Source: an uncultured Clostridia bacterium
GTDB lineage: Bacteria; Bacillota; Clostridia; TANB77; CAG-508
Length of the DNA stretch: 46,508 nt
Reading direction: 5' to 3'
NCBI GenBank assembly: GCA_944386685.1
Contig: CALXCA010000015.1
Span: 1-46,508 of the forward strand
Shown here: positions 13,894 to 30,212 of the stretch, in pieces
Layout: each line of letters opens with the position of its first letter
How positions within the stretch are numbered: position 1 is the stretch's first letter
Notes under the pieces: model-generated
Told to the model about the DNA's origin: nothing
The model's input: the letters and a program-made list of their open reading frames with translations, nothing else
Databases searched by the model: none
Translations under genes and position numbers: made by a program

Positions 13894-14019
13894 TTTTATA
13901 AAAGGCAAAAAAGTGCCGGTTCTATTTTTTCCCTTTTTAATATAATTATGAAAGTTATACTTTCCTATTGTATTAAAAAGGGAAAAAATAGAACCGGCAC
14001 TTTTTTGCCTTTTATAAAA
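13894..14019. repeat. Long-armed palindrome (family R4) at the 3' end of spoIVA
   Basis: Arms of about 48 bp are nearly perfect complements: TTTTATAAAAGGCAAAAAAG, then TGCCGGTTCTATTTTTTCCC, and the mirror image at 13972-14019. The loop contains AAAGTTATACTTTCCTATTG, shared with the hairpin at 13219-13262. The right arm overlaps the spoIVA stop codon (14012-14014), so it likely terminates spoIVA and its convergent neighbour. Confidence 0.75.
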
Positions 14020-14293
14020 TAATACAGATTAATCCTCCAGACCCCTCATTAACAATACGCTCTAATGTTTCCTGTAATTTAATTTGAGCTTCTTCAGGCA
14101 TTTTGGCAAGTTTTGTTTGTAAGCCCTCATTTACAAGTTCATGTAAACTTTTTCCAAAAATATTTGAATTCCAAATACTTGTAGGGTCACTTTCAAAACC
14201 AGAAAGTAAATAATCAACTAATTCTTCAGATTGTTTTTCAGAGCCAACAATAGGAGATACTTCTGTTTCTATATTAGCACGAATTAAATGTAT
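14012..14293 (-). CDS. spoIVA: SpoIVA, C-terminal part of the split gene
   Basis: These 93 codons plus stop begin inside the hexamer ATACAT (Ile-His) and continue LIRANIETEVSPIVGSEKQ, then SEELVDYLL, ending EGSGGLICIIL. This is the conserved SpoIVA C terminus that, from family knowledge, contributes to localisation at the forespore membrane. Upstream of ATACAT the open frame runs on into the mobile element (to 14488), but that portion does not resemble SpoIVA. Joined to codons 1-401 at 29010-30212 it gives a continuous 492-residue protein. There are no stops or frameshifts, which argues against decay. As it stands it has no promoter or start of its own. Confidence 0.93.
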   Translation of the reverse strand: MHLIRANIETEVSPIVGSEKQSEELVDYLLSGFESDPTSIWNSNIFGKSLHELVNEGLQTKLAKMPEEAQIKLQETLERIVNEGSGGLICIIL

Positions 14294-14314
14294 GATAGGC
14301 TCTAAACAGACACA
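14274..14314. other. Element junction, spoIVA 3' side (attachment half-site)
   Basis: The crossover core ATGTAT is at 14288-14293. To its left is the host arm GCACGAATTAA; to its right is the element arm GATAGGCTCTAAACAGACAC. The element arm contains CTAAACAG, the inverted partner of CTGTTTAG at the other junction. The core position is supported because joining here restores spoIVA in frame. Confidence 0.85.
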
Positions 14315-14423
14315 TACATTTGCAAGAAAAAGTGGGCAATTCGTGGAAAGAAGAGTACATGGAATTAAGGAAATGAAGTATGATATTGAGTTTGGAATAG
14401 ATGAATTAAAAATAGATAAATAG
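14294..14423 (+). other. Open 3' coding tail that joins the broken recombinase frame in the excised circle
   Basis: In the frame of the recombinase fragment at 28597-29015, joining across ATGTAT gives an uninterrupted 43-codon continuation (MIGSKQTHTFARKSGQFVER, then RVHGIKEMKYDIEFGIDEL, then KIDK and TAG at 14421). A terminator follows at 14471. The tail therefore looks like the natural end of a gene that is cut by integration. Whether it is translated is unknown. Confidence 0.5.
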
Positions 14424-14470
14424 TTCATAGAAAAATTTAATAAAATATAAATATAAAAAGAGTGAAAAAG

Positions 14471-14495
14471 GATGCAAATTTGAAGCATCTTTTTT
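14471..14495 (+). terminator. Rho-independent terminator
   Basis: GATGC and GCATC pair around AAATTTGAA, followed by TTTTTTTCTTT. It lies 48 bp after the TAG at 14421, consistent with the end of a + strand gene crossing attP in the circle. Confidence 0.65.
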
Positions 14496-14608
14496 TCTTT
14501 GAGAAAAAAGAAAGGTTGTGAGGTTGGTGTTTATTTAAAAAAGAAGATAGAAAAATAAATTTTAAATATACAATATAAACGATGAGAGAAATGGAGGAAA
14601 TATAGTAA

Positions 14609-15727
14609 ATGAAGAAATATAAACATTATTATTTAACAAGTGAATCAGTAACAGAAGGGCATCCTGATAAAGTAGCAGACCTAATATCTGATTCAATTTT
14701 AGATGCTTGTTTAGAGCAAGATAAAAATTCTAGAGTAGCAGTAGAAACAATGCTATCTAATAACAGAGTAGCAGTTGCAGGTCAAATAACAAGTAATGCT
14801 ATAATAGATATTGAAGATATTGTTAGAAAAACATTAAAGCAAGTAGATTATACAGATAAAGAAGTAAATATGGATTACAGAACTTGTGTAGTTGATGTAA
14901 ATATTACAAAACAAAGTAATGATATAGCAATGGGAGTAAATACAGGGGGAGCAGGAGATCAAGGAATTATGTTTGGATATGCTACAGATGAGTCAGAAGA
15001 TTATATGCCATCTCCAATAAGTATTGCTCATAAATTATCAAAAAGACTAGCAGAGGTAAGAAAAAATGGTGAGATGCCATATTTAAAGAGTGATGGAAAA
15101 GTCCAAGTAACAATGGAATACTTAAATGATTTTCCTTTTAGAATAGATACAATATTAATATCAGCACAACATTCAAAAGAGGTGGATTTAGAAACATTGC
15201 AAAAAGACATATTACAAAAAGTTATTGGAAAAGTAATTGAGCCTGATTTGGTAGATATTGAAACAAAATTCTTTATTAATCCAACTGGAAGATTTGTAAT
15301 AGGTGGAGCAGTTGCTGATACAGGATTAACTGGTAGGAAAATTATTGTGGATACTTATGGAGGAGTTGCAAGGCATGGTGGAGGTGCATTTTCAGGAAAA
15401 GATGGAACTAAAGTAGATAGATCTGCATCATATATGTTAAGACATATTGCTAAAAATATTGTAGCAAATGGTTTAGCAAGAAGATGTGAAATTCAAATGA
15501 GTTATGGAATTGGATTAAATGAGCCACTTTCAATATTTATAGATTGCTTTGGTACAAATAGAATTCCAGAAGGTCTTATAATAAAGATAATAAAAGAAAG
15601 ATTTGATTTAACACCACAAGGAATAATTGAATATTTAAAACTAAAAGAGCCGATATATTCTAAAACTACAAATTATGGTCATTTTGGAAGAGAGGGCTTT
15701 ACTTGGGAAGAATTAGTTCAAATATAA
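14609..15727 (+). CDS. metK: S-adenosylmethionine synthetase (element-borne)
   Basis: 372 residues. The enzyme makes S-adenosylmethionine from methionine and ATP. Visible motifs are the ATP/Mg site SVTEGHPDKVADLISD (about 13-28), GGAGDQGIMFGYA (about 117-129) and the phosphate loop RHGGGAFSGKDGTKVDRSA (about 254-272). C-terminal GHFGRE is also kept. It is about 20 residues shorter than typical bacterial MetK but retains the catalytic signatures. ATG 14609 has ATGGAGGAAATATAGTAA upstream. It is the first intact gene of the element and is closed by a strong terminator. No SAM riboswitch is visible ahead of it. No methyltransferase accompanies it, so the reason for carriage is unknown. Confidence 0.93.
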   Translation: MKKYKHYYLTSESVTEGHPDKVADLISDSILDACLEQDKNSRVAVETMLSNNRVAVAGQITSNAIIDIEDIVRKTLKQVDYTDKEVNMDYRTCVVDVNITKQSNDIAMGVNTGGAGDQGIMFGYATDESEDYMPSPISIAHKLSKRLAEVRKNGEMPYLKSDGKVQVTMEYLNDFPFRIDTILISAQHSKEVDLETLQKDILQKVIGKVIEPDLVDIETKFFINPTGRFVIGGAVADTGLTGRKIIVDTYGGVARHGGGAFSGKDGTKVDRSASYMLRHIAKNIVANGLARRCEIQMSYGIGLNEPLSIFIDCFGTNRIPEGLIIKIIKERFDLTPQGIIEYLKLKEPIYSKTTNYGHFGREGFTWEELVQI

Positions 15728-15737
15728 TAAAATTATG

Positions 15738-15810
15738 AAAAGACTTGTATAAAGTTTGAACAAGAGTTAATATACAACACAAACTTTATACGAGGTCTTT
15801 TTTTAGTTTG
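15738..15810 (+). terminator. Strong rho-independent terminator after metK
   Basis: AAAGACTTGTATAAAGTTTG pairs with CAAACTTTATACGAGGTCTT (one or two bulges), then a run of T. The stem is about 18 bp with a 22-nt loop. Confidence 0.85.
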
Positions 15811-15826
15811 GAGAGGTGAATATAAA

Positions 15827-15970
15827 GTGTATATTTTAATTTTAATAGGAGTAGCAATGTTAAGTTCATTTTTAACATTGGTATTGCATTGTTGTTTAAT
15901 CGTAGGAAAGGATAGTGATAAAAATTGGGAGGAAGAGCAGATTATGAAGAAAGAAGAAACAGAAGAATAG
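15827..15970 (+). CDS. Small single-pass membrane protein (DUF3789-like)
   Basis: 47 residues from GTG 15827 (GGAGAGGTGAATATAAA upstream). A single hydrophobic helix, VYILILIGVAMLSSFLTLVL, is followed by HCCLIVGKDSD and an acidic/Lys-rich tail ending KKEETEE. Its size, topology and location ahead of a DUF3560 gene resemble the tiny DUF3789 proteins of gut Clostridia mobile elements; that assignment is from memory. It overlaps the next gene by 46 bp in another frame. Confidence 0.5.
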   Translation: MYILILIGVAMLSSFLTLVLHCCLIVGKDSDKNWEEEQIMKKEETEE

Positions 15971-16638
15971 AAAGGTATAAAGAACTTTCTAAAAAAGCAA
16001 AAGAAAGGTCTAATCAATATATGAATTCAAATGCTAATAAGACTTTAAGTAGAATCCCAGTAGGACAGCCAATATTAACTGACCAGTATTCAGCTAAAGC
16101 ACATACAAGATTAATAGAAAAAGCACATAATAATATACGAAAATCAATAGAAATGGATGATAAAAGCAAATTTTATAATGACAGAGCAAAATCAGCAGAA
16201 AATAGCAAAGTAATATATAGTGATGATCCACAAGCAATTGAAAAGTTAAAAGAAAAATTAGAAAGATTAGAAAATGAAAGAAATTCAATAAAAGCAAGAG
16301 AACATGAAAGTTGGGAACTTGCAAATATTGGTGCTACTATAAGAGAAACCAAAAAGAGAATTGAAAGACTAGAAAATCAAGAAAAAATACAATTTCAAGA
16401 AGTTAATTTTAAAGGTGGAAAAATAATTCATAACAAGGAGATAAATAGAATCCAGTTTCTATTTAACAGTATTCCAAATGAAGATACTAGAAAGATATTA
16501 AAATTACATGGATTTCATTGGTCAAGAAAAGAACAGGCTTGGCAAAGAGAATTCAATCAAAATTGTATAAGAGCAACACATATTATACAAGAAAAAATTA
16601 AAGAACTAGATCAACAGGAGGGTGAAGAATTTGAGTAA
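15925..16638 (+). CDS. DUF3560 domain-containing protein
   Basis: 237 residues from TTG 15925. It starts MGGRADYEERRNRRIERYKE, then SKKAKERSNQY, and contains the DUF3560 features IPVGQPILTDQYSAKAHTRL and KSAENSKVIYSDDPQAIEKL. A long charged coiled coil spans about 60-160. The C-terminal module FNSIPNEDTRKILKLHGFHW, followed by SRKEQAWQREF, is also typical of the family. DUF3560 proteins are common on conjugative and integrative elements and their function is unknown; a nucleic-acid or partition role would be speculation. ATG alternatives within the first residues are lacking. AGGAAAGG lies 13 bp upstream of the TTG. Confidence 0.75.
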   Translation: MGGRADYEERRNRRIERYKELSKKAKERSNQYMNSNANKTLSRIPVGQPILTDQYSAKAHTRLIEKAHNNIRKSIEMDDKSKFYNDRAKSAENSKVIYSDDPQAIEKLKEKLERLENERNSIKAREHESWELANIGATIRETKKRIERLENQEKIQFQEVNFKGGKIIHNKEINRIQFLFNSIPNEDTRKILKLHGFHWSRKEQAWQREFNQNCIRATHIIQEKIKELDQQEGEEFE

Positions 16639-16724
16639 TTTTTAAAGGTAAAACTACTCTAAATAAAAAGCAAAAGGGCACAAAATCGATTCTCGTGCGA
16701 GAGAATCTAAAGGAGAAAATATAA

Positions 16725-17330
16725 ATGGATTTAATAATGAAATTAAATATAGTAAATAAACATGAATATGAAGAACAAGAGGATTACAGAGAAATTATTT
16801 TAAAAATACCAAACCAAATGGAAAGGATGGAAAGAGATTTTAGATATCTAGGATTAGATTATAATAATTTATCAATTCAAGATACACATATATTAAATTG
16901 TGAAGTAATTGATAAAACTGATCCAAGTTTTTCTGGAGCAATTTCAACAGAAATTTCAAATATTATTTCTAGAGCAAAAGATTTAGGATACACAACACCA
17001 TTCCAAGATATTAAAAAAATGTTTACTATTATAAATACTTTTAATAGTAAAGATAAGGATAAATTATTAGCAATACTAGAATGTAAAGAAAGAGAAATCT
17101 CAAAAATGAAAGATGTAATTAAATTTGCTAATAATATTAATTGTTTTGAATTGCTTGAAGCTTATAATGAAGAAGACTTGGCAAGAAAGTTAATTTATAA
17201 CAATGAAATAGATATAGAAGATTTAATGGAATATAGTGATTTACAAAAACTAGGAAGAGATATATCTATAGAACAAAAGATTCTAATGACAGAACAAGGA
17301 TATTTAAGACAAAATGAAGAATTATATTAG
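16725..17330 (+). CDS. ArdA-like antirestriction protein candidate
   Basis: 201 residues. ATG 16725 follows AAAGGAGAAAATATAA. The C-terminal half shows the repeating pattern of Firmicutes ArdA-like proteins: LLAILECKERE, MKDVIKFANNINCFELLEAY, NEEDLARKLIYNNEIDIEDL and LGRDISIEQKIL. ArdA proteins are acidic DNA mimics that block type I restriction when an element enters a cell. This one is acidic and Asn/Glu rich, but the N-terminal half is not clearly ArdA, so it may belong to a related family. A hairpin, GATTCTC-GAGAATC, precedes it at 16688-16709. Confidence 0.5.
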   Translation: MDLIMKLNIVNKHEYEEQEDYREIILKIPNQMERMERDFRYLGLDYNNLSIQDTHILNCEVIDKTDPSFSGAISTEISNIISRAKDLGYTTPFQDIKKMFTIINTFNSKDKDKLLAILECKEREISKMKDVIKFANNINCFELLEAYNEEDLARKLIYNNEIDIEDLMEYSDLQKLGRDISIEQKILMTEQGYLRQNEELY

Positions 17331-17347
17331 CAAAAAGTGGACAACTT

Positions 17348-17377
17348 GGGAGGTCTAAATGACCTCCTCGATTTTTA
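17348..17377 (+). terminator. Hairpin terminator
   Basis: GGAGGTC and GACCTCC pair around TAAAT, followed by TCGATTTTT, 18 bp after the ArdA-like gene stop. Confidence 0.6.
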
Positions 17378-17388
17378 AGAGCACACAG

Positions 17389-17465
17389 CTAAAAGCCACG
17401 CTTTTAGGCAGTTTTCGGGCGAGGGGAGGTCGCCCTGATCCTGCAAAATTGCTAAAAGCAATTTT
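17389..17465 (+). ncRNA. Triple-hairpin structured RNA candidate
   Basis: Three perfect adjacent stems: CTAAAAGC-cac-GCTTTTAG (17389-17407), GGGCGA-TCGCCC (17417-17435) and AAAATTGCT-aaa-AGCAATTTT (17445-17465). The block is much richer in G+C than its neighbours. It lies between a terminator and the AAA+ gene cluster. A 78-codon open frame covers it, but the stems argue for an RNA or leader element. Confidence 0.5.
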
Positions 17466-17496
17466 GATGTGCAAGGAGCAAAACAAGGAGGTATTT

Positions 17497-17595
17497 TTGG
17501 AGAAGAAAAAAGAATGTGAAAAGTTAGAAAAATTGACAATAAGACTTTCCAAAGATAAAAAATTAAAAGATGCAACATTTCCAAAAAAAGTTTAA
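17497..17595 (+). CDS. Possible small basic protein
   Basis: 32 residues from TTG 17497 with a near-consensus ribosome site, AACAAGGAGGTATTT, 5 bp upstream; an in-frame ATG lies at 17467. The product (EKKKECEKLEKLTIRLSKDK, then KLKDATFPKKV) is very basic and would be helical. It lies between the triple-hairpin block and the AAA+ cluster. The ribosome site is the only real support. Confidence 0.35.
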   Translation: MEKKKECEKLEKLTIRLSKDKKLKDATFPKKV

Positions 17596-17712
17596 AATAA
17601 AGGCAAAAAAAGTTGTGGAAAAAAAGTTGTTATGCTACAATAATAAAAGAAGTGATATTTTTGTAAAAAATTATAATGAAGCAAAACTTATAAACATAGA
17701 GGAGTAATATAT

Positions 17713-19894
17713 ATGAGTGATTTTACTTTTTTAACTGAAGAACAATGTTTTGGTAATGATAAACTAGATATATTAAAAAAAAGAGGAACAAAAGCAGCAA
17801 TAACAGATTTTTCTATTCTTTTAGGTGCGTATGTTTCTGATTATCATATAGATAATGATAGTTCTTTGGAGGGAAGAACAGGATATTATTGGACAAAATC
17901 AGATGATGGAGATAATGACGCGCGCGTGGTTGACGATGATGGTTCTAGAGATTACAACGATGTTTACAAACGCGGTGGTGGGGCTCGCCCAGTTTTACCG
18001 TTCTCATCAATCAGCTCAATCCCCACGAACGGAGAGAGTGGGAAAAGAGCAAGAGATGGTGTGCTTGAAGTAGAATATGGATATTACCCACAAAAAGCAG
18101 TTTCAAGAGATATGCAGGATAGATTAGAAAGAGCATATAAAAGTGGAACTATTTCAAAAACAAGAAATAGTTATACAACTGACTCAAGAAAACATAATAC
18201 ATATGATGAAAAATTTTTAGCAAAACAACACGAAGAATATGAATATAATGGAAAGAGATATGTGAGGGTTGAGGCAAATTCTGACTTTGAATGGGGCGAA
18301 ATTCAACTTTCAAATGGAGAAAGTTATAGAGATGGAGATAATGTATGGGTAGAAGTACAACCAGTTAAATGGCTAGTTGATGAAAGAGCAAAAGTTATGA
18401 TAACAGATAAATTGATTTTTTCTGGAGTACAATTTAATTATACGAGAAATTACCATACGAGAGATTTTGATAAAACAGACATAAAAACATTTATGGATAG
18501 ATATTTGTCTAGAGATTTAGAACAATCAAGAGGAACGATAACTTTGGGAGAACAAACAGAAGAATTTAAACCAAGAAAATCTAGATTACAGAAATTAAAT
18601 CCAGATAAAACTAAAGAGCAGGACAGAGCAAAAATGACAGATACTGAAATAATACACAATTGGATTGAAGCAGGGGAATCAGTATTACTTAGAGGACCTT
18701 CTGGAATAGGAAAAACAGAAAGAATTAAATCACTATATCCAGATTTAATTTACATGAAATTAACAAATAATATGTTTCCAGAAAAAGTAGTAGGATCAGT
18801 AAATTTACAAACAGGACAAAGCATTCCACCAGACTTTGCAAAAACAGTCATAATGCAAGAGGCAACAGAAGAGGAAAGAAAATTAATAGAAGAAAACATA
18901 CAAAACATATATGATATAGCAGATGAAGTATATGAAAGGTCAAAAACAAGCGACAAAAAAATTGTAATTATGCTAGATGAACTTTTAAATGTAAAACCAG
19001 CAGTTCAAAGTTTAGTATATACTTTAGTATTAAATAGAATGGTAGAGATAGGAAAAGGATTAAAATTACCAGACAATGTAGTAGTAGTAGCAACAGGAAA
19101 CCAAAAGAAATATTCAAATGTAGCAGAAGATTTGGCAGAGCCATTAGAAAAGAGATTTGATCATATATTAGATATGGAGCCAAAAGTAGGAGAATGGATA
19201 ACAGAATATGCAATACCACAAAAAATACACCCAGCAGTAATAGGATATATGTTGTCAAAATATAACAATTCTGGAAAAAGTGAAGATATACAAGACATAG
19301 GATATTTTTATGAAGAGCCAGAAGTAGGAGAAGAACATTTAGATAGAAATGGATGTAAAGGAAGGACAAATGATCCAAGAGGATGGACATCAATATCAAA
19401 TACATTATATAATTTTGAAAGAAATTTAGAGCAAGGTAAATATGAAGGAAAAGATGTAGAAGATATAATACAAAGGTCAATAGGGACAAAACTAAGAGAA
19501 GAATGGGCAGCAGAATTTTTTGATTTTTATAATCTCCCAACACTAACACCAGAAGAAGTAGTAAAAGGAATGGGAGAAGGATATACGCAAGCAGATTTGC
19601 CAAGAGATATAAGCGAAAGATTTGCATATATGACAGCATTAATAACAGCAGATGAAAAACAAGTAGAAACATGTAGAGAGTTCATAAGAAAATATTGTGA
19701 TCCAGAATATTTAGAAGTATATGATATATATTGGGCAGGAAATGATGAAAGAAGACAAGAGAAAATAAGTGAATTACAAGAAATGACTTTAGCTTTGCAT
19801 ACAAGTAAAGAAACCAAAAGTTTTGCACCAGATGGAGCAAGTAGATATCCAGACATAGGACAAATGTATAGTGCATATTTAGGAAGAGATTCAA
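17713..19894 (+). repeat. 2,182-bp exact duplication, unit 1
   Basis: Runs from the start codon to GATTCAA near the gene end and appears identical to 20798-22979 (offset 3,085 bp); proteins in several frames are identical. Outside these limits only the ribosome-site region is similar. The 3' ends diverge after Ser-727. Confidence 0.88.
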
Positions 19895-19914
19895 AAGAAA
19901 TAATTAGGGAGTGA
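17713..19914 (+). CDS. MoxR-like AAA+ ATPase with FGE/C-type-lectin-like N-terminal domain, copy 1
   Basis: 733 residues. Residues 1 to about 260 resemble DUF6273/formylglycine-enzyme-like (C-type lectin fold) domains: GYYWTKSDDGDNDARVVDDD, then RGGGARPVLPFSSI, and later VEVQPVKWLVDERAKVMITD. The AAA+ module follows: Walker A GPSGIGKT (328-335), Walker B IVIMLDE (417-423), sensor-1 VVVATGN (Asn 463), arginine finger in LEKRFDH (Arg 481). A long helical C-terminal region completes it. MoxR ATPases act as chaperones or remodellers working with VWA proteins; the VWA partner is at 23048. AGAGGAGTAATATAT precedes the ATG. The coding sequence is repeated at 20798. A conflict or defence role is inferred from context. 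Confidence 0.8.
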   Translation: MSDFTFLTEEQCFGNDKLDILKKRGTKAAITDFSILLGAYVSDYHIDNDSSLEGRTGYYWTKSDDGDNDARVVDDDGSRDYNDVYKRGGGARPVLPFSSISSIPTNGESGKRARDGVLEVEYGYYPQKAVSRDMQDRLERAYKSGTISKTRNSYTTDSRKHNTYDEKFLAKQHEEYEYNGKRYVRVEANSDFEWGEIQLSNGESYRDGDNVWVEVQPVKWLVDERAKVMITDKLIFSGVQFNYTRNYHTRDFDKTDIKTFMDRYLSRDLEQSRGTITLGEQTEEFKPRKSRLQKLNPDKTKEQDRAKMTDTEIIHNWIEAGESVLLRGPSGIGKTERIKSLYPDLIYMKLTNNMFPEKVVGSVNLQTGQSIPPDFAKTVIMQEATEEERKLIEENIQNIYDIADEVYERSKTSDKKIVIMLDELLNVKPAVQSLVYTLVLNRMVEIGKGLKLPDNVVVVATGNQKKYSNVAEDLAEPLEKRFDHILDMEPKVGEWITEYAIPQKIHPAVIGYMLSKYNNSGKSEDIQDIGYFYEEPEVGEEHLDRNGCKGRTNDPRGWTSISNTLYNFERNLEQGKYEGKDVEDIIQRSIGTKLREEWAAEFFDFYNLPTLTPEEVVKGMGEGYTQADLPRDISERFAYMTALITADEKQVETCREFIRKYCDPEYLEVYDIYWAGNDERRQEKISELQEMTLALHTSKETKSFAPDGASRYPDIGQMYSAYLGRDSKEIIRE
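17917..18042 (+). other. G+C-rich, DGR-variable-region-like segment in the lectin-like domain
   Basis: My hand count gives 68 G/C of 126 (about 54%), in a gene otherwise near 30%. Codons switch to GCG, CGC, GTG and CGG, while the rest of the gene uses AGA for Arg. It encodes ARVVDDDGSRDYNDVYKRGG and then GARPVLPF, the place where diversity-generating retroelement targets vary. CCGTTC and GAACGG form a stem just downstream. An identical segment is at 21002-21127. Confidence 0.5.
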
Positions 19915-19919
19915 AGAAA

Positions 19920-23047: not shown

Positions 23048-24577
23048 ATGGGAATTAGTACAGATTTGATTTATGATGTAAAGAGAAAAATGTTAGCAAA
23101 ATATCCTAGATTCGGTAGCGAAATAGCTGTGGCTAATATTGAATTTAAAGAAAATTTACCATATCATACTGCAGCAACTGATGGAAAAAATGTATATGTT
23201 GATCCTAATTATTTTGAAAGTTTAAGCGAAAATGAAAGAATATTTATAATAGCACATGAAATAATGCATATTAAATTTATGCACATGTTTAGATTAAAGG
23301 ATAAAGATGGTAAAAAAAGAGATCCAGACCTTTGGAATATAGCAACTGATGCTATTATAAATGCAAATTTGGAAAGAGATGGATTTACAATTAAAGAAGG
23401 ATATGTAAATATGCCAGAAGCATTAAATTATTCGGCAGAAGAATTTTATCAAAAGTTATTGGAAGAAAAAGAAAAGAAACAGAATGAACAACAAAATGGA
23501 CAAAAGCAGGAGCAAGGAGATGGACAGGAACAAGGTCAAAATAGTGGACAAAGCAAAGAACAAGATGGTGGTCAAAAGCAAAAGGATAAACAAAGTCAAA
23601 ATCAAGAAGAAAATGATGAACAAGAAAATGGGCAAGATAATAATAAGGAAAAATCGGATAAAGATGAAAATCAAAATTCAAATGAAGGCAAATATAAAGG
23701 TGATGATCATAGCTTATGGGAAGAGGCTTTTAAACAACAACAAGCTTCTAAGGAAAAAGGGCAAAAGCAAAGTAATACACAAAAAAAGCAAGAACAACAA
23801 GCACAAGGGCAAGAGCAAATTGGCGAAGAACAGATAGATATGGATTTTGACGAAAGAGGAGAATTTGAAGATAATAGAAAAGAAAAAAGAGAAAAGTTTA
23901 AATCTAGACGAGAAAAGACTCAAAAAGGCATAAGAAGTGCAAAAGAAGAAACAATTAAATTAGGAAATATAGGTGAAAGCAAAGAAGCTATTGATTGGAA
24001 AGTTTTATTACGAAGGGAAGTAGAAAAAACAGAAACAATTTGGAGTCAAAGGCGTTCTATTGCAGAAAATAATTATGCTTATAGACTAGAAGAAAATGAT
24101 ATAGAAGATGAGGCAGAAACAGAAATAATGATAGATGTTTCTGGATCAGTAGATTTAGATTTAGTAAAAGCATTTTTAAGGCAAATAAAGCCAATCTTAA
24201 AGCAATCAAAATTAAAAGTGGGATGCTTTAACGAAAAGTTTTGGGGGCTTGTAGATATTAAAAGTGCAAGAGATATAGATAATTTTGCTATACCTAGAGA
24301 GGCTAGAGGACATTCTGCATGGACAGAGGATTGGGATTTAGCAGTAAGAAGTTTTACCCGAAAAAGAGAAATAAATAAAATAGTATTTACTGATGGTTAT
24401 CCATGTCCTGGTACAATGCCAAAAGAAGATTTAAAGAGAGAAAATGTTATTTGGTTAGTCTATGGAAATAAAGATTTTCAACCTTGTTGTGGTAAGGTTA
24501 TAAATATTACTGAAAAACAATTAGAACAATTACATCAAATTGATAAAAGTAGTTCTATTGATGAGTTAAGTAGATAA
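23048..24577 (+). CDS. DUF2201-type zinc metallopeptidase / VWA-like protein
   Basis: 509 residues. The N-terminal domain (1 to about 140) has the zincin motif AHEIMHIKFMH (HEIMH at 70-74) and TDAIINANLERDG. Residues about 140-280 are a low-complexity Gln/Glu/Lys/Asn linker. The C-terminal VWA-like domain has the metal-dependent adhesion motif MIDVSGSVD (DVSGS at 363-367) and IVFTDGYPCPG. The domain order fits DUF2201 proteins, which are usually encoded next to MoxR ATPases, as here (33 bp downstream of copy 2). By analogy the ATPase would remodel or load this protein onto targets, and the peptidase could be an effector. AAGGAAGGGAGAAAC precedes ATG 23048. Confidence 0.8.
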   Translation: MGISTDLIYDVKRKMLAKYPRFGSEIAVANIEFKENLPYHTAATDGKNVYVDPNYFESLSENERIFIIAHEIMHIKFMHMFRLKDKDGKKRDPDLWNIATDAIINANLERDGFTIKEGYVNMPEALNYSAEEFYQKLLEEKEKKQNEQQNGQKQEQGDGQEQGQNSGQSKEQDGGQKQKDKQSQNQEENDEQENGQDNNKEKSDKDENQNSNEGKYKGDDHSLWEEAFKQQQASKEKGQKQSNTQKKQEQQAQGQEQIGEEQIDMDFDERGEFEDNRKEKREKFKSRREKTQKGIRSAKEETIKLGNIGESKEAIDWKVLLRREVEKTETIWSQRRSIAENNYAYRLEENDIEDEAETEIMIDVSGSVDLDLVKAFLRQIKPILKQSKLKVGCFNEKFWGLVDIKSARDIDNFAIPREARGHSAWTEDWDLAVRSFTRKREINKIVFTDGYPCPGTMPKEDLKRENVIWLVYGNKDFQPCCGKVINITEKQLEQLHQIDKSSSIDELSR

Positions 24578-24593
24578 GTTAAAAGCAAATTAA

Positions 24594-25310
24594 ATAGATG
24601 GAGTAAAGTTAACTGGAGCAGGGCAAGAGTTTTTTAAATATGCAGAGCAAGGACTTGCAACCTTGAATTTAGGTGAAAAGTTAATAATGCAAAAAAGTGA
24701 TTTAGCAACTGTAGAAATAGCAATAGGTTGTCCATCACATCTAACAACATTTTATCTAATGGATTATATAGAAAAGGCAAAAACTGATTACCCTGATTTA
24801 AAAATAAACCTTATTAGTGGTGCAAATTTTGATAAAACGATACAAATGTTAGAAGAACATAGACTAGATTTTATAATAGATACAACACAAGTAGATACAA
24901 ATTATAATAACCTTGTAATTGAAGAAATAAAAGAAGTACAAAATATATTCATTTCTAACAAACCAATTAAAATAAAAGATTTAAAAGAACTAGAAAGTCA
25001 AAAGTATATATTGAATTTTGAATATAGTTCTACTATAAAGAAATTGAGAAATATACTAAAACAGCATGATGTAGAAATAGAGTCAAATATGCAATGTGAT
25101 ATAACAGAGTTGAGAGTAGAGGCTACAAAACGAGGATTAGGAATAGGTTATGTAATGAAAGAGGCTGTAAAAAACGAATTAGAAAACAAGGAATTATATA
25201 AAGTGGAATTGCCGATAGAATTACCTAAATCTAAAATTAATTTAATCTATATAAAAGAACAATTAACACAAGCAGATAGAAAATTTATAAAAGAATATTT
25301 GAAAAAATAA
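24594..25310 (+). pseudogene. LysR-type regulator lacking its DNA-binding N terminus
   Basis: From 24594 the frame reads IDGVKLTGAGQEFFKYAEQG, the wing and linker-helix start of a LysR winged HTH, after a stop at 24591. The rest is a complete substrate-binding domain: VEIAIGCPSHLTTFYLMDYI, RLDFIIDTT and EATKRGLGIGYVMKEAV. The first roughly 60 residues, which bind DNA, are missing and the junction lies 14 bp after the VWA gene stop. A protein could still start at TTG 24663 or ATG 24690 as a solo effector domain, but a 5' deletion is the simpler reading. Confidence 0.7.
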
Positions 25311-25334
25311 GCATCACAAAATGGTGCTTTTTTC
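25310..25334 (+). terminator. Rho-independent terminator
   Basis: AGCATCA and TGGTGCT pair (one T-G wobble) around CAAAA, followed by a run of six T. It directly follows the stop of the LysR remnant. Confidence 0.7.
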
Positions 25335-25461
25335 GTTATATAAAGAAAGAAAAAGTGTAAATCAAATTGCAACAGAAATGAATTTACAAAGAAGTACAAT
25401 ATGGAGAATAAAAAATAAAACTCAAGATAAAATCTTGAAATATTTATTGGGAGGAAAATAA
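25321..25461 (+). CDS. Small HTH fragment
   Basis: 46 codons. SLYKERKSVNQIATEMNLQR, then STIWRIKNK, is a clear helix-turn-helix of the resolvase/transposase type. The apparent ATG at 25321 lies inside the terminator stem and has no ribosome site, so this may be a remnant of a longer regulator or recombinase, or be read from an unrecognised start. Confidence 0.35.
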   Translation: MVLFSLYKERKSVNQIATEMNLQRSTIWRIKNKTQDKILKYLLGGK

Positions 25462-25462
25462 A

Positions 25463-25633
25463 ATGTTTAATAATTTTGATTTAAGTGATGAAGAAATATT
25501 GAAAATATTAGAAGATTATAAACCTTTAATAGTAAAAATGAGTAGATTAAGAGATGGTCTTGATGAGGATTTAATGCAAGAAATTAAATATATAATTTAT
25601 AAAACTTTAACAAAAAATAGAAAAAATTTATAA
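25463..25633 (+). CDS. HTH_16-like conjugative-element regulator domain protein
   Basis: 56 residues. ATG 25463 follows TTGGGAGGAAAATAAA. The sequence LSDEEILKILEDYKPLIVKM, then SRLRDGLDEDLMQEIKYIIY, resembles the sigma-70-region-like short proteins (helix_turn_helix 16) found on Tn916-type elements. It could be a small regulator controlling the recombinase genes downstream. Family call from motif memory. Confidence 0.5.
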   Translation: MFNNFDLSDEEILKILEDYKPLIVKMSRLRDGLDEDLMQEIKYIIYKTLTKNRKNL

Positions 25634-25691
25634 AAAATGCAACATCGGTATTTTAAATTGAAACTCCTATTATTGAAGGAGATAAGAAAAT

Positions 25692-25976
25692 ATGGATGAT
25701 AAAAAAGAAATCAAACCAGTTACTGAAGTAAAAGAAATAAAGGAAACAAAAGATTCTAAAGAAACAAAAGCAACATTAAAAGTAAATCAAAAAGAAGAAA
25801 TGGAACTTATTATTGCTTATGCTCAAGTATCAATTCATACTTTACAACACAGTGGAACAGAAATTACACCAAAAGCAATTAGAGAAGAAATAAAAATGTT
25901 TTACAATAAGTTTGGTAATGAAGATATTAAAAGATTAGCAAATACTATTGTGAAAGAGAAAAAGGAGAAAAAATAA
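25692..25976 (+). CDS. Hypothetical element protein
   Basis: 94 residues. ATG 25692 follows GAAGGAGATAAGAAAAT. The first 35 residues are a disordered Lys/Glu/Thr run; the remainder (MELIIAYAQVSIHTLQHSGT, then EITPKAIREEIKMFYNKFG) appears helical. Overlapping expression signals couple it to the next gene, which starts one base after its stop. Role unknown. Confidence 0.55.
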   Translation: MDDKKEIKPVTEVKEIKETKDSKETKATLKVNQKEEMELIIAYAQVSIHTLQHSGTEITPKAIREEIKMFYNKFGNEDIKRLANTIVKEKKEKK

Positions 25977-25977
25977 A

Positions 25978-26274
25978 ATGATTAAATATATTATTTTCTC
26001 TGTAATCTCTTTCATGCTTGGTATTTTTGCCAGAGAGATTATAGAGATATTAGAAAGAAAAAAGAAAAAAGATGATATTGCTTATGAACAATTAAAACAA
26101 GCACATATTCAAGCAACTATGGAATTATCAGGAGGAAGAAAAACTATAAGCAATCGAGCATTTAGAAATTGGAATTCTTCAATATATAAATATAATGAAA
26201 AGAACCAAAGTTACCAATTAAAGAGTGGTATTAATGTAGGAGCAGATGTACCTAAAACTATAAAGTGGAAATAA
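25978..26274 (+). CDS. Small membrane-anchored hypothetical protein
   Basis: 98 residues. ATG 25978 follows AAGGAGAAAAAATAAA. An N-terminal membrane anchor (MIKYIIFSVISFMLGIFARE) precedes a charged helix and a short tail with GGRKTISNRAFRNWNSSIY. It is translationally coupled to the upstream gene. Unknown function; membrane location would be unusual for a recombination directionality factor. Confidence 0.5.
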   Translation: MIKYIIFSVISFMLGIFAREIIEILERKKKKDDIAYEQLKQAHIQATMELSGGRKTISNRAFRNWNSSIYKYNEKNQSYQLKSGINVGADVPKTIKWK

Positions 26275-26324
26275 TTGTAATATTTTTTTTATATGTTCAA
26301 TATACATTAAACAGAGGTGACGGA

Positions 26325-26477
26325 ATGGACAAAATATTTGATAATATAGATACAAAGATAGTAGACAAGTTTGAAAAATCTATAATTGAGATTTTGAGTA
26401 TTTATTTAATTAGTTCAGCAAATAAGCAAGGATTAATTGATGATAATATGAAAGAATATATAATACATAACATTTGA
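26325..26477 (+). CDS. Small acidic protein preceding the recombinase
   Basis: 50 residues from ATG 26325 with AGAGGTGACGG upstream. The earlier in-frame region from 26265 overlaps the previous gene and is not needed. Sequence: MDKIFDNIDTKIVDKFEKSI, then IEILSIYLISSANKQG, predicted helical. It ends 16 bp before the recombinase start. Conserved short proteins in this position accompany many clostridial large serine recombinases; a directionality-factor role is possible but unproven. Confidence 0.5.
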   Translation: MDKIFDNIDTKIVDKFEKSIIEILSIYLISSANKQGLIDDNMKEYIIHNI

Positions 26478-26493
26478 CTTTGGAGGATTGAGT

Positions 26494-28125
26494 ATGGATT
26501 TATATACAATTAGAAAAGAGTTAAGTGAGGGAAAATCTATTTATGATTTACCTTTAAGAGTTACATATTATGCGAGAGTTTCAACAGAGAAAGAAGAACA
26601 AAAAAATTCATTGGGAAATCAAGATACATATTATAAAAACAAGATATTAGAAACACCAAAATGGGTTTTAGTTCCTGGATATACAGATGATGGAATAACA
26701 GGAACATCTACTAAAAAAAGAAAAGATTTTAACTCAATGATAGAGGATGGATTAAATGATAAATATGACTTGATTTTAACAAAAGAGGTATGTAGATTTG
26801 CAAGAAATACATTAGACACATTACGATTAACCAGAGATTTATTAGCAAAGGGAAAAGGAGTATATTTTGAATTAGATAATATCAATACATTAGAACAAGA
26901 AGGAGAACTAAGATTAACTATTATGGCATCACTTGCTCAAGACGAAAGTAGAAGAATTTCTGAAAGAGTAAAATTTGGTTTCAAAAGATCAATAGAGAAT
27001 GGAAGAGTTCTAGGAAATAATTCAATTTGGGGATACGAAAAAGATAATTGTAAATTGAAATTAAATGAGGAAGAAGCACAAATAGTAAAAAAGATTTATG
27101 AAATATATTCTACAGGAAAAATAGGTATTAGAAAAATTGGAAAAGAACTTGCTAGACAAGGGATATATACAAGAGATGGTGAAGAATTTGCATATTCAAC
27201 AATTAAAAATATATTGACTAATCCAAAATACAAAGGTTTTTATTCAGGAAACAAAACAAGAGTTATAGATTTTATGACAAAGCAAAGAGTATATTTGGGT
27301 GAAGATGAAATTGTAGAATATAAAGCAAAAGAAGATGTAGTTCCTCAAGTTGTAGATGATAAAATTTGGGAAAGATGTAATGAAATTTTTAAGAAAAGAA
27401 GTGAACAGGCTAAAAGCTTAACCAAAGGATATAATAATAAATATAAATATTCAGGAAAAATATTTTGCAAACATGATGGACAAAGTTATTGGAGATCCAT
27501 AAATCGAGGAAAAGAATTTTGGCAATGTTCATTATATAATAAGAAAGGAACACAAGGTTGCGAACATAATGTTAATGTATATACAGAAACATTGGATTTA
27601 GTATTTGTAAAAATATTTAAAGAATTATTTGTTCATAAAGATGAGTTCATTAATAACTTATTAGAGAAATCTATGACTTATATAAAGGAATGTATGACAG
27701 GAAATGATATGCAAAGACTTGAAGAAAAGATTGAGAAAACTAAAAAAGAAAGAAAAAAATTAATAAAATTATATACTACTGATTTAATAGATGAAAAAGA
27801 ATTTGAAGAAGAAAACAACATTTATAATGATAAAATAAATAAACTAGAAGATGAATATAATAAATTAAATGAATCAAGAAATTTAAATAATATAAATCAG
27901 TTAGAAGAAAATTTAAGAAAGAGTTTTCAGAAAGATATGGAATTTAATTTAGGTGTGCCAGATGAAATAACAGATAAAATATTAGATAAAATAGAAGTTG
28001 AAAGATTAGATGATAATGGATTAGCAAATTTAGAAATCTTTTTAAGTGTTGGAATAAGATTAAACATATTATATAAAAAGAAAAAGATAATCAAATACAT
28101 AGAGCAACAAAAAGTTGCAATTTAA
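26494..28125 (+). CDS. Large serine recombinase (site-specific integrase/excisionase)
   Basis: 543 residues from ATG 26494, 7 bp after GGAGG (TTG 26488 is too close). The catalytic domain contains TYYARVSTEKEEQ (nucleophile Ser30), DDGITGTSTKKRKDF and KEVCRFARNT. The recombinase domain (EEEAQIVKKIYEIYSTGKIG, then LTNPKYKGFYSGNK) and zinc ribbon (KIFCKHDGQSYWR, CSLYNKKGTQGCEH) follow. A coiled-coil region (about 395-460) completes it, all as in the phiC31/TnpX/SpoIVCA-type enzymes. It presumably inserts and excises this element at the ATGTAT core. A terminator follows directly. Confidence 0.92.
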   Translation: MDLYTIRKELSEGKSIYDLPLRVTYYARVSTEKEEQKNSLGNQDTYYKNKILETPKWVLVPGYTDDGITGTSTKKRKDFNSMIEDGLNDKYDLILTKEVCRFARNTLDTLRLTRDLLAKGKGVYFELDNINTLEQEGELRLTIMASLAQDESRRISERVKFGFKRSIENGRVLGNNSIWGYEKDNCKLKLNEEEAQIVKKIYEIYSTGKIGIRKIGKELARQGIYTRDGEEFAYSTIKNILTNPKYKGFYSGNKTRVIDFMTKQRVYLGEDEIVEYKAKEDVVPQVVDDKIWERCNEIFKKRSEQAKSLTKGYNNKYKYSGKIFCKHDGQSYWRSINRGKEFWQCSLYNKKGTQGCEHNVNVYTETLDLVFVKIFKELFVHKDEFINNLLEKSMTYIKECMTGNDMQRLEEKIEKTKKERKKLIKLYTTDLIDEKEFEEENNIYNDKINKLEDEYNKLNESRNLNNINQLEENLRKSFQKDMEFNLGVPDEITDKILDKIEVERLDDNGLANLEIFLSVGIRLNILYKKKKIIKYIEQQKVAI

Positions 28126-28150
28126 AAGCTCAAAAGGGCTTTTTTCTTTT
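28124..28150 (+). terminator. Rho-independent terminator of the recombinase gene
   Basis: AAAAGCTC and GGGCTTTT pair around AAAA, followed by TTCTTTTT; it begins at the stop codon. Confidence 0.75.
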
Positions 28151-28171
28151 TAAATAAAAACTCCCAAAGTG

Positions 28172-28200
28172 TTGACAATACACTAAAACAGAGTTACAAC
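28172..28200 (+). promoter_or_regulatory. Promoter candidate for the second recombinase gene
   Basis: TTGACA at 28172-28177, 17-bp spacer, TACAAC at 28195-28200. The inverted pair ACTCCCAA (about 28160) and TTGGGAGT (about 28218) brackets it; the latter includes the ribosome site of the next gene. Confidence 0.45.
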
Positions 28201-28232
28201 ACAACTAAGATTATTAGTTGGGAGTGATTTAT

Positions 28233-29015
28233 ATGAATTTATATGAAATGCGAAAAGCATTATCTTCTGGAAAAAGTATATATGATCTACCGTTAAGAGT
28301 GACATATTATGCTAGAGTATCAACAGAAAAAGATTATCAAAAAAATTCTCTTGAAAACCAAGATACTGATTATAAAAAGAAAATTTTGTCAGTACCTAAA
28401 TGGACATTAGTAAACGGATATACAGATGATGGAATCACAGGGACATCTACTAAAAAAAGAGATGACTTCAATGCTATGATACGAGATGGATTAGAAGATA
28501 TGTATGATTTAATATTAACAAAAGAAGTATGTAGATTTGCAAGGAATACAATAGACACATTACAAATAACAAGAGAATTATTAGCAAAGGGAAATAGTGG
28601 AAAAATATAAAAAAGAACATATAGATACTACTAATTTGGAAAATAAGATAGAAGAGATAGAACAGAATAAAAAAGGTTTAGTAAAGTTATATTCAATAAA
28701 CAAAATTGATGAAAATGAATTTGAAGAATTAAATAATGAATACAAAAATAAAATACTTGAATATAAAGCACAATTAATAGATATAAAAAATGACAAATAT
28801 GGAAGGGAGATGGAAAAAAATGCTGGTAAAATAAGAGAATATTTTAACTTTGATAATTTTGAAATAACAAAGGAATTTATACATAACAAGATAAGTTGTA
28901 TATATGTTAAGAAGTTAGAAAAAAATCATGTAAGATTAAAAATAAATTTCCACCTCGATCTTACGATGTCTGAGGTGGATAAAAAAAGTATCTGTTTAGG
29001 TCTTATTATATGTAT
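28233..29015 (+). pseudogene. Second large serine recombinase, internally deleted and frameshifted
   Basis: ATG 28233 (TTGGGAGTGATTTAT upstream) opens a catalytic domain paralogous to the intact enzyme: TYYARVSTEKDYQ, DDGITGTSTKKRDDF, KEVCRFARNT, with Ser30 kept. It stops at 28610 just after LLAKGN. From GTG 28597 in another frame the coiled-coil and C terminus resume (LENKIEEIEQNKKGLVKLYS, then NFEITKEFIHNKISCIYVKK). About 270 residues, the recombinase and zinc-ribbon domains, are missing. The C-terminal frame stays open through the junction core at 29010-29015. The N-terminal piece may still make a catalytic-domain protein. Confidence 0.8.
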
Positions 29016-30212
29016 TGATGGTGCTGTAGCACGTAGTTTTACTCCAAATCTTGAACCTTGTTTTACCATTTCTGGTTCTTCTAAAACTAATTCATCAATA
29101 GATGGTGTAACAATACCATATCCTTTTCTTTTTACATCTTCTAAAGCGGAAGAAATTTTATCATATTTTTTCTTTGTATCAGCTAAATCATGCATTATAG
29201 AAAATAATTCACCCTCATTTGTTATTTCTAACCCAGTAATTTCTGATAATACTTTATAAAATAACTCGTTTTTTAAATTAATTGTTATACAAACTTTGCC
29301 TGTTCCAAGCATAATATTATCAATAAATGTTTTAGAAATAATATCTGTCGATTCTATTGCAGAAACACAATTAGAAATATCTTTTAAAGCAGAAACATCT
29401 ATAAAAGCATTTTTTATTTGTTCAAATAATTGTGATTTTAAAGGATGATTATAATCTAGCGAATTTACCCATTTTGGAAAGTTTATTTTTATTTCTTCAA
29501 CAGGAAATTCGTATAATAGACTAGCAAACATTGAATTAATATCATCTGCTGTTAATTGTTCACAATTTATAGGCATAACTTTAGTATGATATTTATCTGA
29601 TAGCTGAACAGAAAGTTCTTTAACTTCTGGCGAATGTGGATTTTCTGAGTTTAATAAAATAATAAATGGCTTATGTAATGCACGAAGTTCGCTAACAACT
29701 CTTTCTTCTGCTTTAATATAATCATCACGAGGAATATCTGTTATAGAACCATCTGTTGTAACTAGAATACCGATTGTAGAATGTTCTTCTATAACTTTTT
29801 TTGTTCCAATTTCTGCAGCTGTTTCAAATGGAATTTCTTCTTCTGACCAAGGTGTTTTTACCATTCTTGGCATATCATCTTCTAAATATCCAATTGCATT
29901 GTCTACTAAATACCCAACGCAATCTACTAAACGAGTTTTTAATTTTAAATTTTTATCTATTGTAATTTCTACAGCCTCATTTGGTACGAACTTAGGCTCA
30001 GTAGTCATTATTGTACGACCACCAGCACTTTGTGGAAGCTCATCTTTAGCTCTTTCTTTTTTGTATTCATTATCTATATTAGGAATAACAAGTAAATCCA
30101 TAAATTTTTTAATAAATGTAGATTTACCAGTTCTAACAGGACCTACAACTCCTATATAAATATCTCCATCTGTTCGTTTGGCTATATCTTGATATAAGCC
30201 TACATTATCCAT
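28926..30212 (-). CDS. spoIVA: SpoIVA, N-terminal part of the split gene
   Basis: Residues 1-401 (30212 to 29010) are authentic SpoIVA; the remaining 27 codons to the TGA at 28926 are read from the element. The NTPase motifs are intact: Walker A VGPVRTGKSTFIKKF (Lys30), TIMTTEPKFVPNEAVE with the threonine switch, and DCVGYLVDNA. SpoIVA is a cytoskeletal ATPase that polymerises on the mother-cell face of the forespore and anchors coat and cortex assembly. The truncated product lacks the last roughly 90 residues. ATG 30212 has AGAGGAGGTATTTAA upstream. Excision of the element would restore 492 residues. Confidence 0.95.
   Translation of the reverse strand: MDNVGLYQDIAKRTDGDIYIGVVGPVRTGKSTFIKKFMDLLVIPNIDNEYKKERAKDELPQSAGGRTIMTTEPKFVPNEAVEITIDKNLKLKTRLVDCVGYLVDNAIGYLEDDMPRMVKTPWSEEEIPFETAAEIGTKKVIEEHSTIGILVTTDGSITDIPRDDYIKAEERVVSELRALHKPFIILLNSENPHSPEVKELSVQLSDKYHTKVMPINCEQLTADDINSMFASLLYEFPVEEIKINFPKWVNSLDYNHPLKSQLFEQIKNAFIDVSALKDISNCVSAIESTDIISKTFIDNIMLGTGKVCITINLKNELFYKVLSEITGLEITNEGELFSIMHDLADTKKKYDKISSALEDVKRKGYGIVTPSIDELVLEEPEMVKQGSRFGVKLRATAPSIHIIRPKQILFLSTSDIVRSRWKFIFNLT
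28988..29030. other. Element junction, spoIVA 5' side (attachment half-site)
   Basis: Core ATGTAT at 29010-29015. The element arm on the left, GTATCTGTTTAGGTCTTATT, includes CTGTTTAG; the host arm on the right is TGATGGTGCTG. Joined with the other junction, attP has CTGTTTAG/CTAAACAG placed symmetrically (24 bp apart), and attB has GCAC/GTGC 13 bp to either side of the same centre. Confidence 0.85.

What the first reader, a model, noticed from the sequence alone, without database searches (positions are those of the whole stretch)
14012..30212. spoIVA is split by a 14.7-kb skin-like element whose precise excision would restore a 492-residue SpoIVA
Seen: the two halves of spoIVA lie on the same strand on either side of 14,722 bp, each ending in the shared hexamer ATGTAT (+ strand). 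Joining gives APSIH-LIRANIETE with no frameshift or stop, 399+2+91 residues. Both halves are undecayed and a full large serine recombinase is present. Established: skin (sigK) and SP-beta (spsM) excise in the mother cell, which dies, so the spore keeps the element. SpoIVA is needed in that same cell. Inference: this element is a developmentally excised intervening sequence in spoIVA, a target I cannot recall as an established case.
Basis: partly seen in the sequence, partly recalled or inferred. Interest (0 to 1): 0.95.

Follow-up and report, generated by a model that had tools for sequence, protein, structure and literature searches.

The report
Mobile DNA splitting sporulation gene spoIVA
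In this gut bacterium and in 11 other genera of Clostridia, spoIVA, a gene that spores need, is cut at the same codon by inserted DNA that mostly carries its own recombinase, and this DNA is likely removed again in the mother cell so that the gene can work.

Summary
The split is real. spoIVA is cut after codon 401 (His) by 14,722 bp; both halves (401 and 91 codons) are open, and this 1.93-Mb, 100%-complete genome shows no other copy. The element carries an intact large serine recombinase (LSR) and a second, broken one. Another species (G110) has the same element ends (98-99% over ~2.3 kb) at the same codon while its close relatives are intact: recent, site-specific integration. Beyond the window, spoIVA is cut after the same His in 12 genera of six families, by elements of 4.8-47 kb with different LSR lineages. 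In five Ruminiclostridium species a 5.4-6.3-kb element co-diverges with its host; spoIVA halves and LSR stay under strong purifying selection. One of these genomes matches R. cellulolyticum H10, published as 35.7% heat-resistant. Excision during sporulation, as for skin and SP-beta, is therefore the best explanation, but no excision junction was seen and the timing is inferred. New here: spoIVA as target, recombinase-SpoIVA_C fusions, and an att site inside the recombinase gene, so that integration splits host gene and recombinase together. For the window's own element, excision is less sure (second LSR broken, host sporulation untested).

The parts
29010..30212 (-). spoIVA N-terminal half, 401 codons, ATPase and middle domains
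   Evidence: PF09547 E 5.9e-119, PF20438 E 2.2e-62; open frame continues 27 codons into the element
14012..14287 (-). spoIVA C-terminal half, 91 codons plus stop, SpoIVA_C domain; nearest in-frame ATG 47 codons upstream, inside the element
   Evidence: PF20439 E 1.1e-37
14288..29009 (.). intervening element, 14,722 bp
   Evidence: junction codons by comparison with intact relatives
14288..14293 (+). ATGTAT repeat, C-half side; deduced crossover dinucleotide is the CA (TG on +) of the His codon
   Evidence: core deduced by comparing attL and attR of G230
29010..29015 (+). ATGTAT repeat, N-half side (codons Ile-His)
14294..14316 (+). element-side att arm, C-half side (contains CTCTAAACAGACACAT)
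   Evidence: conserved in G110, G103, G230, G353, G295
28987..29009 (+). element-side att arm, N-half side (contains GTATCTGTTTAGGTCTTATTAT), inverted copy of the other arm
   Evidence: identical in G110 and G136:C99, related in G230, G322, G353, G295
26488..28125 (+). large serine recombinase LSR1, 545 aa, intact
   Evidence: Resolvase, Recombinase, Zn_ribbon_recom above cut-off
28218..29009 (+). second recombinase LSR2, broken by an internal deletion; its frame runs through the att site antisense into spoIVA
   Evidence: matches P0188 residues 1-120 and 413-573 in different frames; full-length in relatives
26325..26477 (+). 50-aa small protein directly upstream of LSR1; candidate recombination directionality factor (inferred)
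   Evidence: small protein of 44-65 aa near this place in the other elements examined, picked by eye; no Pfam or NCBIfam family
25692..26274 (+). two small ORFs (94 and 98 aa) conserved upstream of the recombinase in class-A elements
   Evidence: tblastn hits in L088-L091
14609..15727 (+). second metK (SAM synthetase) carried as cargo
   Evidence: chromosomal metK on G000:C7 at 72% DNA identity
15925..16638 (+). DUF3560 protein
   Evidence: PF12083 E 3.1e-31; recurs in G110, G103, G023, G230, G295, G353
17713..19914 (+). AAA ATPase, first copy
   Evidence: PF07728
20798..23014 (+). AAA ATPase, second copy, first 2182 nt identical to the first
23048..24577 (+). DUF2201 (metallopeptidase/VWA-like) protein
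   Evidence: PF13203 E 5.9e-27
24663..25310 (+). LysR-type substrate-binding domain; no DNA-binding domain found in this frame
   Evidence: PF03466 E 3.5e-19

Best explanation
The 14.7-kb stretch is an integrated mobile element that splits the genome's only detected spoIVA at a His codon, and it is likely cut out precisely by its own large serine recombinase during sporulation, which would restore a 492-codon spoIVA in the mother cell. Shown by sequence: single-copy spoIVA, halves on one strand, identical crossover codon in many lineages, the same element ends in two species, intact recombinase. Shown for Ruminiclostridium: an old element that diverges in step with its host, with both halves and recombinase under purifying selection. 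Inferred: precise excision, its timing, its limitation to the mother cell, and control by the small protein next to the recombinase. The forespore would keep the unexcised copy, so that the element is inherited.
For: Junctions and single copy. G110 holds the same element ends (99% DNA over 2.3 kb at one end; about 70 bp at the other) at the same codon although its spoIVA N-half is only 77% identical to the window's, and its closest relatives compared are intact. 22 genomes chosen as split candidates: 21 of 22 have SpoIVA_C, only as an 86-114-aa frame or a 637-643-aa recombinase fusion, plus one 58-aa piece at a contig end of G814; 21 of 22 have the ATPase part, none in a full-length gene. Ruminiclostridium: 6 of 11 species split; in the five with the 5.4-6.3-kb element (10 pairs) dN/dS is 0.021-0.055 (N-half), 0-0.014 (C-half), 0.052-0.086 (LSR), LSR dS 0.21-0.89 beside N-half dS 0.18-0.56, and a branch with support 1.000 separates the five from the rest. 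Li et al. 2014 (PMC3936895, passages): C. cellulolyticum wild type 35.7% heat survival, none detected in a spo0A mutant. SpoIVA is essential for resistant spores in C. sporogenes (PMC11076785, abstract) and C. difficile (PMC6436350, abstract).
Against: No attB or attP junction was found: one copy of each spoIVA half in the own genome; the metK-end stretch of the element matched only itself and the 72% chromosomal metK there; a degenerate attP pattern had 0 matches in viral contigs. LSR2 of the window is broken. No sigma-E-type box upstream of the LSR in 5 of 5 Ruminiclostridium elements (my own consensus scan). The window's element arrived recently (sister G107 is intact), so the constraint on its halves mostly predates the insertion. 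G103 has the C-half and an element end but no N-half in a 99%-complete genome. Whether the window's host sporulates was not tested.
Confidence: 0.77

Rival explanations
1. spoIVA is only a handy integration site: the element inactivates it, and carriers sporulate poorly or only in the few cells where it leaves by chance (active-lysogeny-like, not developmental).
For: The window's element is mobile and recent; LSR2 is broken; G103 has no N-half; the recombinase of four of five Ruminiclostridium elements has a sigma-A-like upstream sequence (read by eye).
Against: In five Ruminiclostridium species the split is shared and the halves keep dN/dS of at most 0.055; C. cellulolyticum is published as sporulating at tens of percent, too much for rare excision.
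Confidence: 0.15
2. The split protein works in two pieces: N-half with a short tail plus a separately made C-domain, without DNA excision.
For: In Ruminiclostridium the recombinase stop codon overlaps an ATG at the start of the C-half (ATGA), and other elements fuse the recombinase in frame to SpoIVA_C.
Against: In the window and G110 the C-half starts with Leu and the nearest in-frame ATG is 47 codons upstream in the element; tails on the N-half differ between classes; the crossover codon is exactly the one that rejoins the gene.
Confidence: 0.06
3. Assembly error or mixed strains joined two unrelated contigs.
For: The genome is in 49 contigs and the element holds an exact 2.2-kb repeat; G136 and G100 contain both an intact and a partial spoIVA.
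Against: Same kind of junction in G110, in five named MAGs and in single-contig genomes G602, G664, G845.
Confidence: 0.02

Closest known systems
skin element in sigK (B. subtilis, C. difficile; PMC5025042, passages)
   Same: LSR element in a mother-cell sporulation gene; removal restores the frame
   Different: Target is spoIVA, made earlier than sigK (recalled); excision not yet seen here; att site inside the recombinase gene
SP-beta in spsM (PMC4191935, passages)
   Same: Mobile element of LSR type integrated in a sporulation gene; relatives with most phage genes lost
   Different: No phage structural gene among the ten window-element proteins scanned; target differs
gin in gerE (PMC5595907, passages)
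   Same: Non-prophage intervening element with a serine recombinase
   Different: Target, size range (4.8-47 kb here) and spread over six to seven families
yin in yabG (PMC10747680, passages), vfbin in spoVFB, vrin in spoVR (named there and)
   Same: Intervening elements in sporulation genes of Firmicutes
   Different: Other genes; PMC10747680 and PMC4191935 hold no mention of spoIVA

Membership tests
Sporulation gene-intervening elements (skin type) | Lies inside a sporulation gene, both parts on one strand and in frame when it is removed | tested here: met
Sporulation gene-intervening elements (skin type) | Short identical sequence at both ends and an own site-specific recombinase | tested here: met
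Sporulation gene-intervening elements (skin type) | No intact second copy of the target gene | tested here: met
   window genome; other split genomes:
Sporulation gene-intervening elements (skin type) | Precise excision in sporulating cells | not testable with these tools
   no reads or cultures; no junction in what was searched
Sporulation gene-intervening elements (skin type) | Recombinase or its directionality factor made only in the mother cell | tested here: inconclusive
   promoter scan weak; small partner protein found but its role and promoter are untested
Active prophage (SP-beta type) | Phage structural genes in the element | tested here: not met
   10 element proteins against PHROGs: only ATPase, clamp-loader-like, primase-like, HNH and unknown families; metK, the LSRs, the second AAA copy and shorter or antisense ORFs were not in that scan
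SCCmec cassette recombinases (CcrA/B/C) | NCBIfam equivalog score | tested here: not met
   LSR1 113.8 bits against cut-off 900 for CcrB
fdxN-element recombinase XisF | NCBIfam equivalog score | tested here: not met
   69.8 bits against cut-off 375

The most novel reading that the evidence does not exclude
Integration cuts two genes at once. The att core lies in the His codon of spoIVA on the host side and inside the 3' end of the recombinase gene on the element side, so integration splits spoIVA and truncates the recombinase, and excision repairs both. In one class the integrated recombinase even ends in the SpoIVA C-terminal domain. The recombinase tail would then report whether the element is in or out and set the direction of the reaction, making spoIVA one of the most widely used rearranged developmental genes of Clostridia.
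Probability: 0.4. Interest if true: 0.92.

Novelty: new variant of a known kind. Interest (0 to 1): 0.87.

Why it matters
[quoted passage not shown] Galperin et al. 2012 (PMC3533761, Table 3) list spoIVA among genes conserved in all spore-forming bacilli and clostridia. If it is normally broken in the inherited genome of many Clostridia and rebuilt only in the dying mother cell, developmental DNA rearrangement is far commoner than the handful of known cases, and genome pipelines will misjudge such species as spoIVA-defective. It would also explain why that paper lists spoIVA as omitted from the annotation of C. cellulolyticum H10 (Table 2). C. cellulolyticum is culturable, sporulates and has been mutated with group II introns, so the claim is directly testable.

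Tried and rejected
Sigma-E promoter scan: a box lies upstream of spoIVA in all five Ruminiclostridium genomes scanned and in the window, none upstream of their LSR; weak candidates near LSR1 of the window; not used as evidence for control. Viral-contig scans gave nothing: recombinase 0 confirmed of 9 stretches, attP pattern 0. PADLOC gave no convincing defence system (best DolB E 1.8e-5, partial). I first took the short spoIVA frames of G015, G028, G010, G096, G106 for further insertions; they are +1 frameshifts at CGG. Frames of 389-396 aa (G073, G152, G188, G198, G119) were not examined. No genus-wide count of split genes is given because cut its list.

How far the recombinase hits were followed; 67 of 210 genus genomes had a hit at E <= 1e-60; context was examined for G000, G136 and, through, G079; 43 of 385 genomes had a hit; besides the window 13 were fetched: 10 split (G351, G044, G446, G254, G315, G295, G322, G353, G272, G393) and 3 with no spoIVA near the LSR (G079, G358, G420); 29 were not fetched; 26 of 391 had a hit; besides the window 15 were fetched: 5 show no spoIVA near the LSR (G625, G546, G722, G521, G595), 10 have split spoIVA, of which G817 has its LSR on a contig apart from both halves; 10 were not fetched. 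So LSRs of this kind also sit elsewhere.

Rows dropped: G846 was not parsed and is missing from the Ruminiclostridium tree; N-halves of G322, G353, G446 were not parsed (CGG frameshift) and C-halves of G528, G640, G814, G817 failed the script's pattern there; G295 and G315 were not parsed. Structure prediction, fold search and Rfam were not used.
Full report
OBSERVATION. On the minus strand the N-half runs 30212..29010 (401 codons, ending APSIH) and the C-half 14287..14012 (91 codons and stop); 14,722 bp lie between. The + strand hexamer ATGTAT stands at 14288 and 29010. The halves carry SpoIVA_ATPase plus most of SpoIVA_middle, and the end of SpoIVA_middle plus SpoIVA_C. The genome (1.93 Mb, 49 contigs, 100% complete, 1.7% contamination) has one ATPase-domain hit and one C-domain hit. 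Of the 30 loci of relatives, 27 read through this codon in one frame and 3 have a frameshift elsewhere. The closest host relative compared, G107 (SpoIVA N-half 94% identical), is intact.

THE ELEMENT. It carries metK, DUF3560, two AAA ATPases (first 2182 nt identical), a DUF2201 protein, a LysR-type substrate domain, small ORFs, an intact 545-aa LSR (26488-28125) and a second LSR broken by an internal deletion (residues 121-412 of P0188 missing). Ten proteins scanned against PHROGs gave no structural phage protein. Species G110, whose SpoIVA N-half is 77% identical to the window's, has the same junctions and element ends on two contigs: 99% DNA identity over 2.3 kb at the metK end (MetK 98.7%, DUF3560 98.3%) and about 70 bp, matching in the stretch printed, at the other. 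The middle of its element, recombinase included, was not found in its assembly (hits to E 1e-60). In the SpoIVA tree G000 is sister to intact G107, and G110 falls with intact G034, G027, G020, G007. So this element moved between species and entered the same codon.

A WIDER PHENOMENON. All 5 loci found in named genomes with the window's LSR lie beside a spoIVA N-half cut at the same place. Searches over 385 genomes of the order and 391 of the class, followed in part (see Tried and rejected), led to 22 split candidates that I tested with both Pfam domains: SpoIVA_C in 21 of 22, as a lone 86-114-aa frame or as part of a 637-643-aa recombinase (G814 also has a 58-aa piece at a contig end; G322 none); SpoIVA_ATPase in 21 of 22, none in a full gene (G103 none; the 492-aa frame of G230 is 401 codons plus element sequence). 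The N-half leaves the spoIVA sequence right after APSIH in 20 of 21 genomes parsed, and in G322 and G353; G640 is cut about ten codons later. The same codon is hit in 12 genera (g1, g14, g16, g21, g25, g40, g9, g73, g220, g146, g228, g66) of six families; G640 adds a 13th genus and a seventh family. In g146 (G817) the recombinase was on a contig apart from both halves. Where both ends lie on one contig, sizes are 4.8 kb (G351), 5.2 (G272), 5.4-6.3 (five Ruminiclostridium), 9.4 (G393), 14.7 (window), about 22 (G488), 26 (G766), 35 (G230), 39 (G528) and 47 kb (G254) (the larger ones worked out by hand from coordinates). Stand-alone C-halves also occur among metagenome proteins: of 19 proteins read, 12 start in element-type leader sequence; P0013 is in 114 contigs and P0001 in 19.

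SITE. The element arms flanking the core are inverted copies of each other, as expected for serine-integrase attP sites (recalled feature). In G230 attL and attR agree only at CA plus short flanking positions, so I place the crossover at the CA that starts the invariant His codon: host drift at third positions cannot spoil it, and rejoining always restores His. This is deduced, not measured.

ARCHITECTURES. Class A (window with LSR2 broken, G230, G136:C99, three g14 genomes, two g16 genomes; G110 by its ends): tandem LSR pair next to the N-half. Class B (G351, G044, G446): the LSR reads through the junction into SpoIVA_C. Of the 120 proteins listed (of 6360 hits), 16 carry SpoIVA_C; I read 12, all joined at the same His. 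Class C (G272, G393, Ruminiclostridium): LSR ending at the junction. The LSRs fall in at least three lineages of one midpoint-rooted tree (A with B; C with G488, G766, G814, G817; G640), and gut-family and Ruminiclostridium class C LSRs group together although the hosts are distant: horizontal spread.

THE ATT SITE LIES IN THE RECOMBINASE GENE. In five of five Ruminiclostridium elements the integrated LSR is 547 aa and takes its stop codon from spoIVA (overlapping an ATG); across the would-be circle it would be 581 aa with a conserved tail. The tail frame has pN/pS 0.32; the overlapping N-half tail frame 0.41; the third frame 1.38. In its last 12 codons, beyond the N-half's stop, the tail frame has 0.20 against 1.38 and 1.84 in the other frames, and the stretch after the tail 0.94. 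In class A, the LSR2 frame continues, at the far end of the element, into a similar 38-45-aa tail in 8 of 8 genomes (similarity by eye). In G351 the fusion (635 aa) would become 575 aa, with a tail I could not compare. These tails join the recombinase only when the element's ends meet, as in an excised circle, so their conservation speaks for recurrent excision. Small numbers and possible DNA-level constraint near att are caveats.

LONG-TERM CONSTRAINT. In Ruminiclostridium (names), 6 of 11 species are split and 5 intact. Five with a 5.4-6.3-kb element are separated from the others by a branch of support 1.000 (the order within the five is poorly supported), the LSR diverges in step with the host gene, and dN/dS stays at 0.021-0.055 (N-half), 0-0.014 (C-half), 0.052-0.086 (LSR) over 10 pairs (G846 not in the tree). 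The sixth, R. sufflavum (G528), has a 39-kb element and groups with an intact species. A broken, unused gene would not stay so conserved. For the window against intact G107, dN/dS is 0.052 (N) and 0.022 (C), but most of that history precedes the insertion. G602 is a single contig of 4,068,724 bp; PMC5748583 (passages) gives C. cellulolyticum H10 as one contig and the species genome as 4.07 Mb, so I take G602 as H10 (inferred). Wild-type C. cellulolyticum showed 35.7 +/- 7.3% heat survival and a spo0A mutant no detectable colonies (PMC3936895, passages). SpoIVA is needed for resistant spores in C. sporogenes and C. difficile (PMC11076785, PMC6436350; abstracts and, for the second, passages). 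PMC3533761 (section 7 read) lists spoIVA as omitted from the H10 annotation; the passages found with six terms do not mention an insertion.

MECHANISM. Most likely the recombinase, helped by a directionality factor, removes the element in the mother cell; SpoIVA is then made there, while the forespore keeps the element. A 44-65-aa protein sits just upstream of the LSR in 18 of the 20 elements looked at (13, picked by eye among the small ORFs listed; 5; 2 not parsed) and has no family (8 scanned, 7); I propose it as that factor. Sporulation control of recombinase or factor was not shown. PMC5595907 (passages) reports both modes elsewhere: constitutive recombinase with a sporulation-specific factor, or a sporulation-specific recombinase.

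NOVELTY. Intervening elements named in the passages read: sigK, spsM, spoVFB, spoVR, gerE, yabG. spoIVA has 0 occurrences in the main texts of PMC5595907, PMC4191935 and PMC10747680. Searches combining spoIVA with recombinase, integration site, prophage insertion, skin element and cellulolyticum listed no title or abstract start on an interrupted spoIVA; only the open-licence library was searched, and most listed papers were seen as listings only.

LIMITS. No junction of excision was seen. The window's own element is recent in its host, with one LSR broken. G103 (C-half only), G100 (relic C-half beside an intact gene) and G136 (intact gene plus split N-half on another contig) show that carriage is sometimes disordered or the bins mixed.

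Noticed in passing
L210-L215, L224, L015, L025, L034, L035, L019, L163, L165 (spoIVA); L096:2226, L097:11529 (DUF3560): Recurrent +1 frameshifts: all 16 frame breaks in 14 spoIVA loci, and two in DUF3560, fall on a CGG, mostly where one extra C turns a Gly codon GGN of relatives into CGGN, including the Walker-A Gly, at different positions in different species. CGG is absent from 4760 codons of 12 window genes. Suggests programmed +1 frameshifting or quadruplet reading at an unused CGG codon in this family.
   Followed up: partly
window 17713-19914 and 20798-23014: Two AAA ATPase genes identical over 2182 nt at 3085-bp spacing; G107:C17 carries the same doubled cargo (AAA and DUF2201 97-99%) beside another recombinase, while its spoIVA is intact on another contig.
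   Followed up: partly
window 14609-15727; G000:C7:47362-48472: The element carries a second metK beside the chromosomal one; metK with DUF3560 recurs in elements elsewhere.
   Followed up: no
L195, L196, L197, L199 (Ruminiclostridium): The ~6-kb element carries agr-like genes and, in four of five species, a dockerin-bearing galactanase-like protein (names by eye, recalled): host-like cargo in an old element.
   Followed up: no
L032 (G100:C44) and L033 (G100:C24): A spoIVA C-half with a damaged att junction beside an intact spoIVA in the same bin: relic or mixed bin.
   Followed up: partly
L094 (G103:C2): C-half with a diverged relative of the element (81-83%) but no spoIVA N-half detected in a 99%-complete genome.
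   Followed up: partly
L011 (G025): spoIVA frame of 449 aa with an internal loss inside the C-terminal domain, no element.
   Followed up: no
G220:C26 and G220:C86: Two full-length spoIVA genes in one bin.
   Followed up: no
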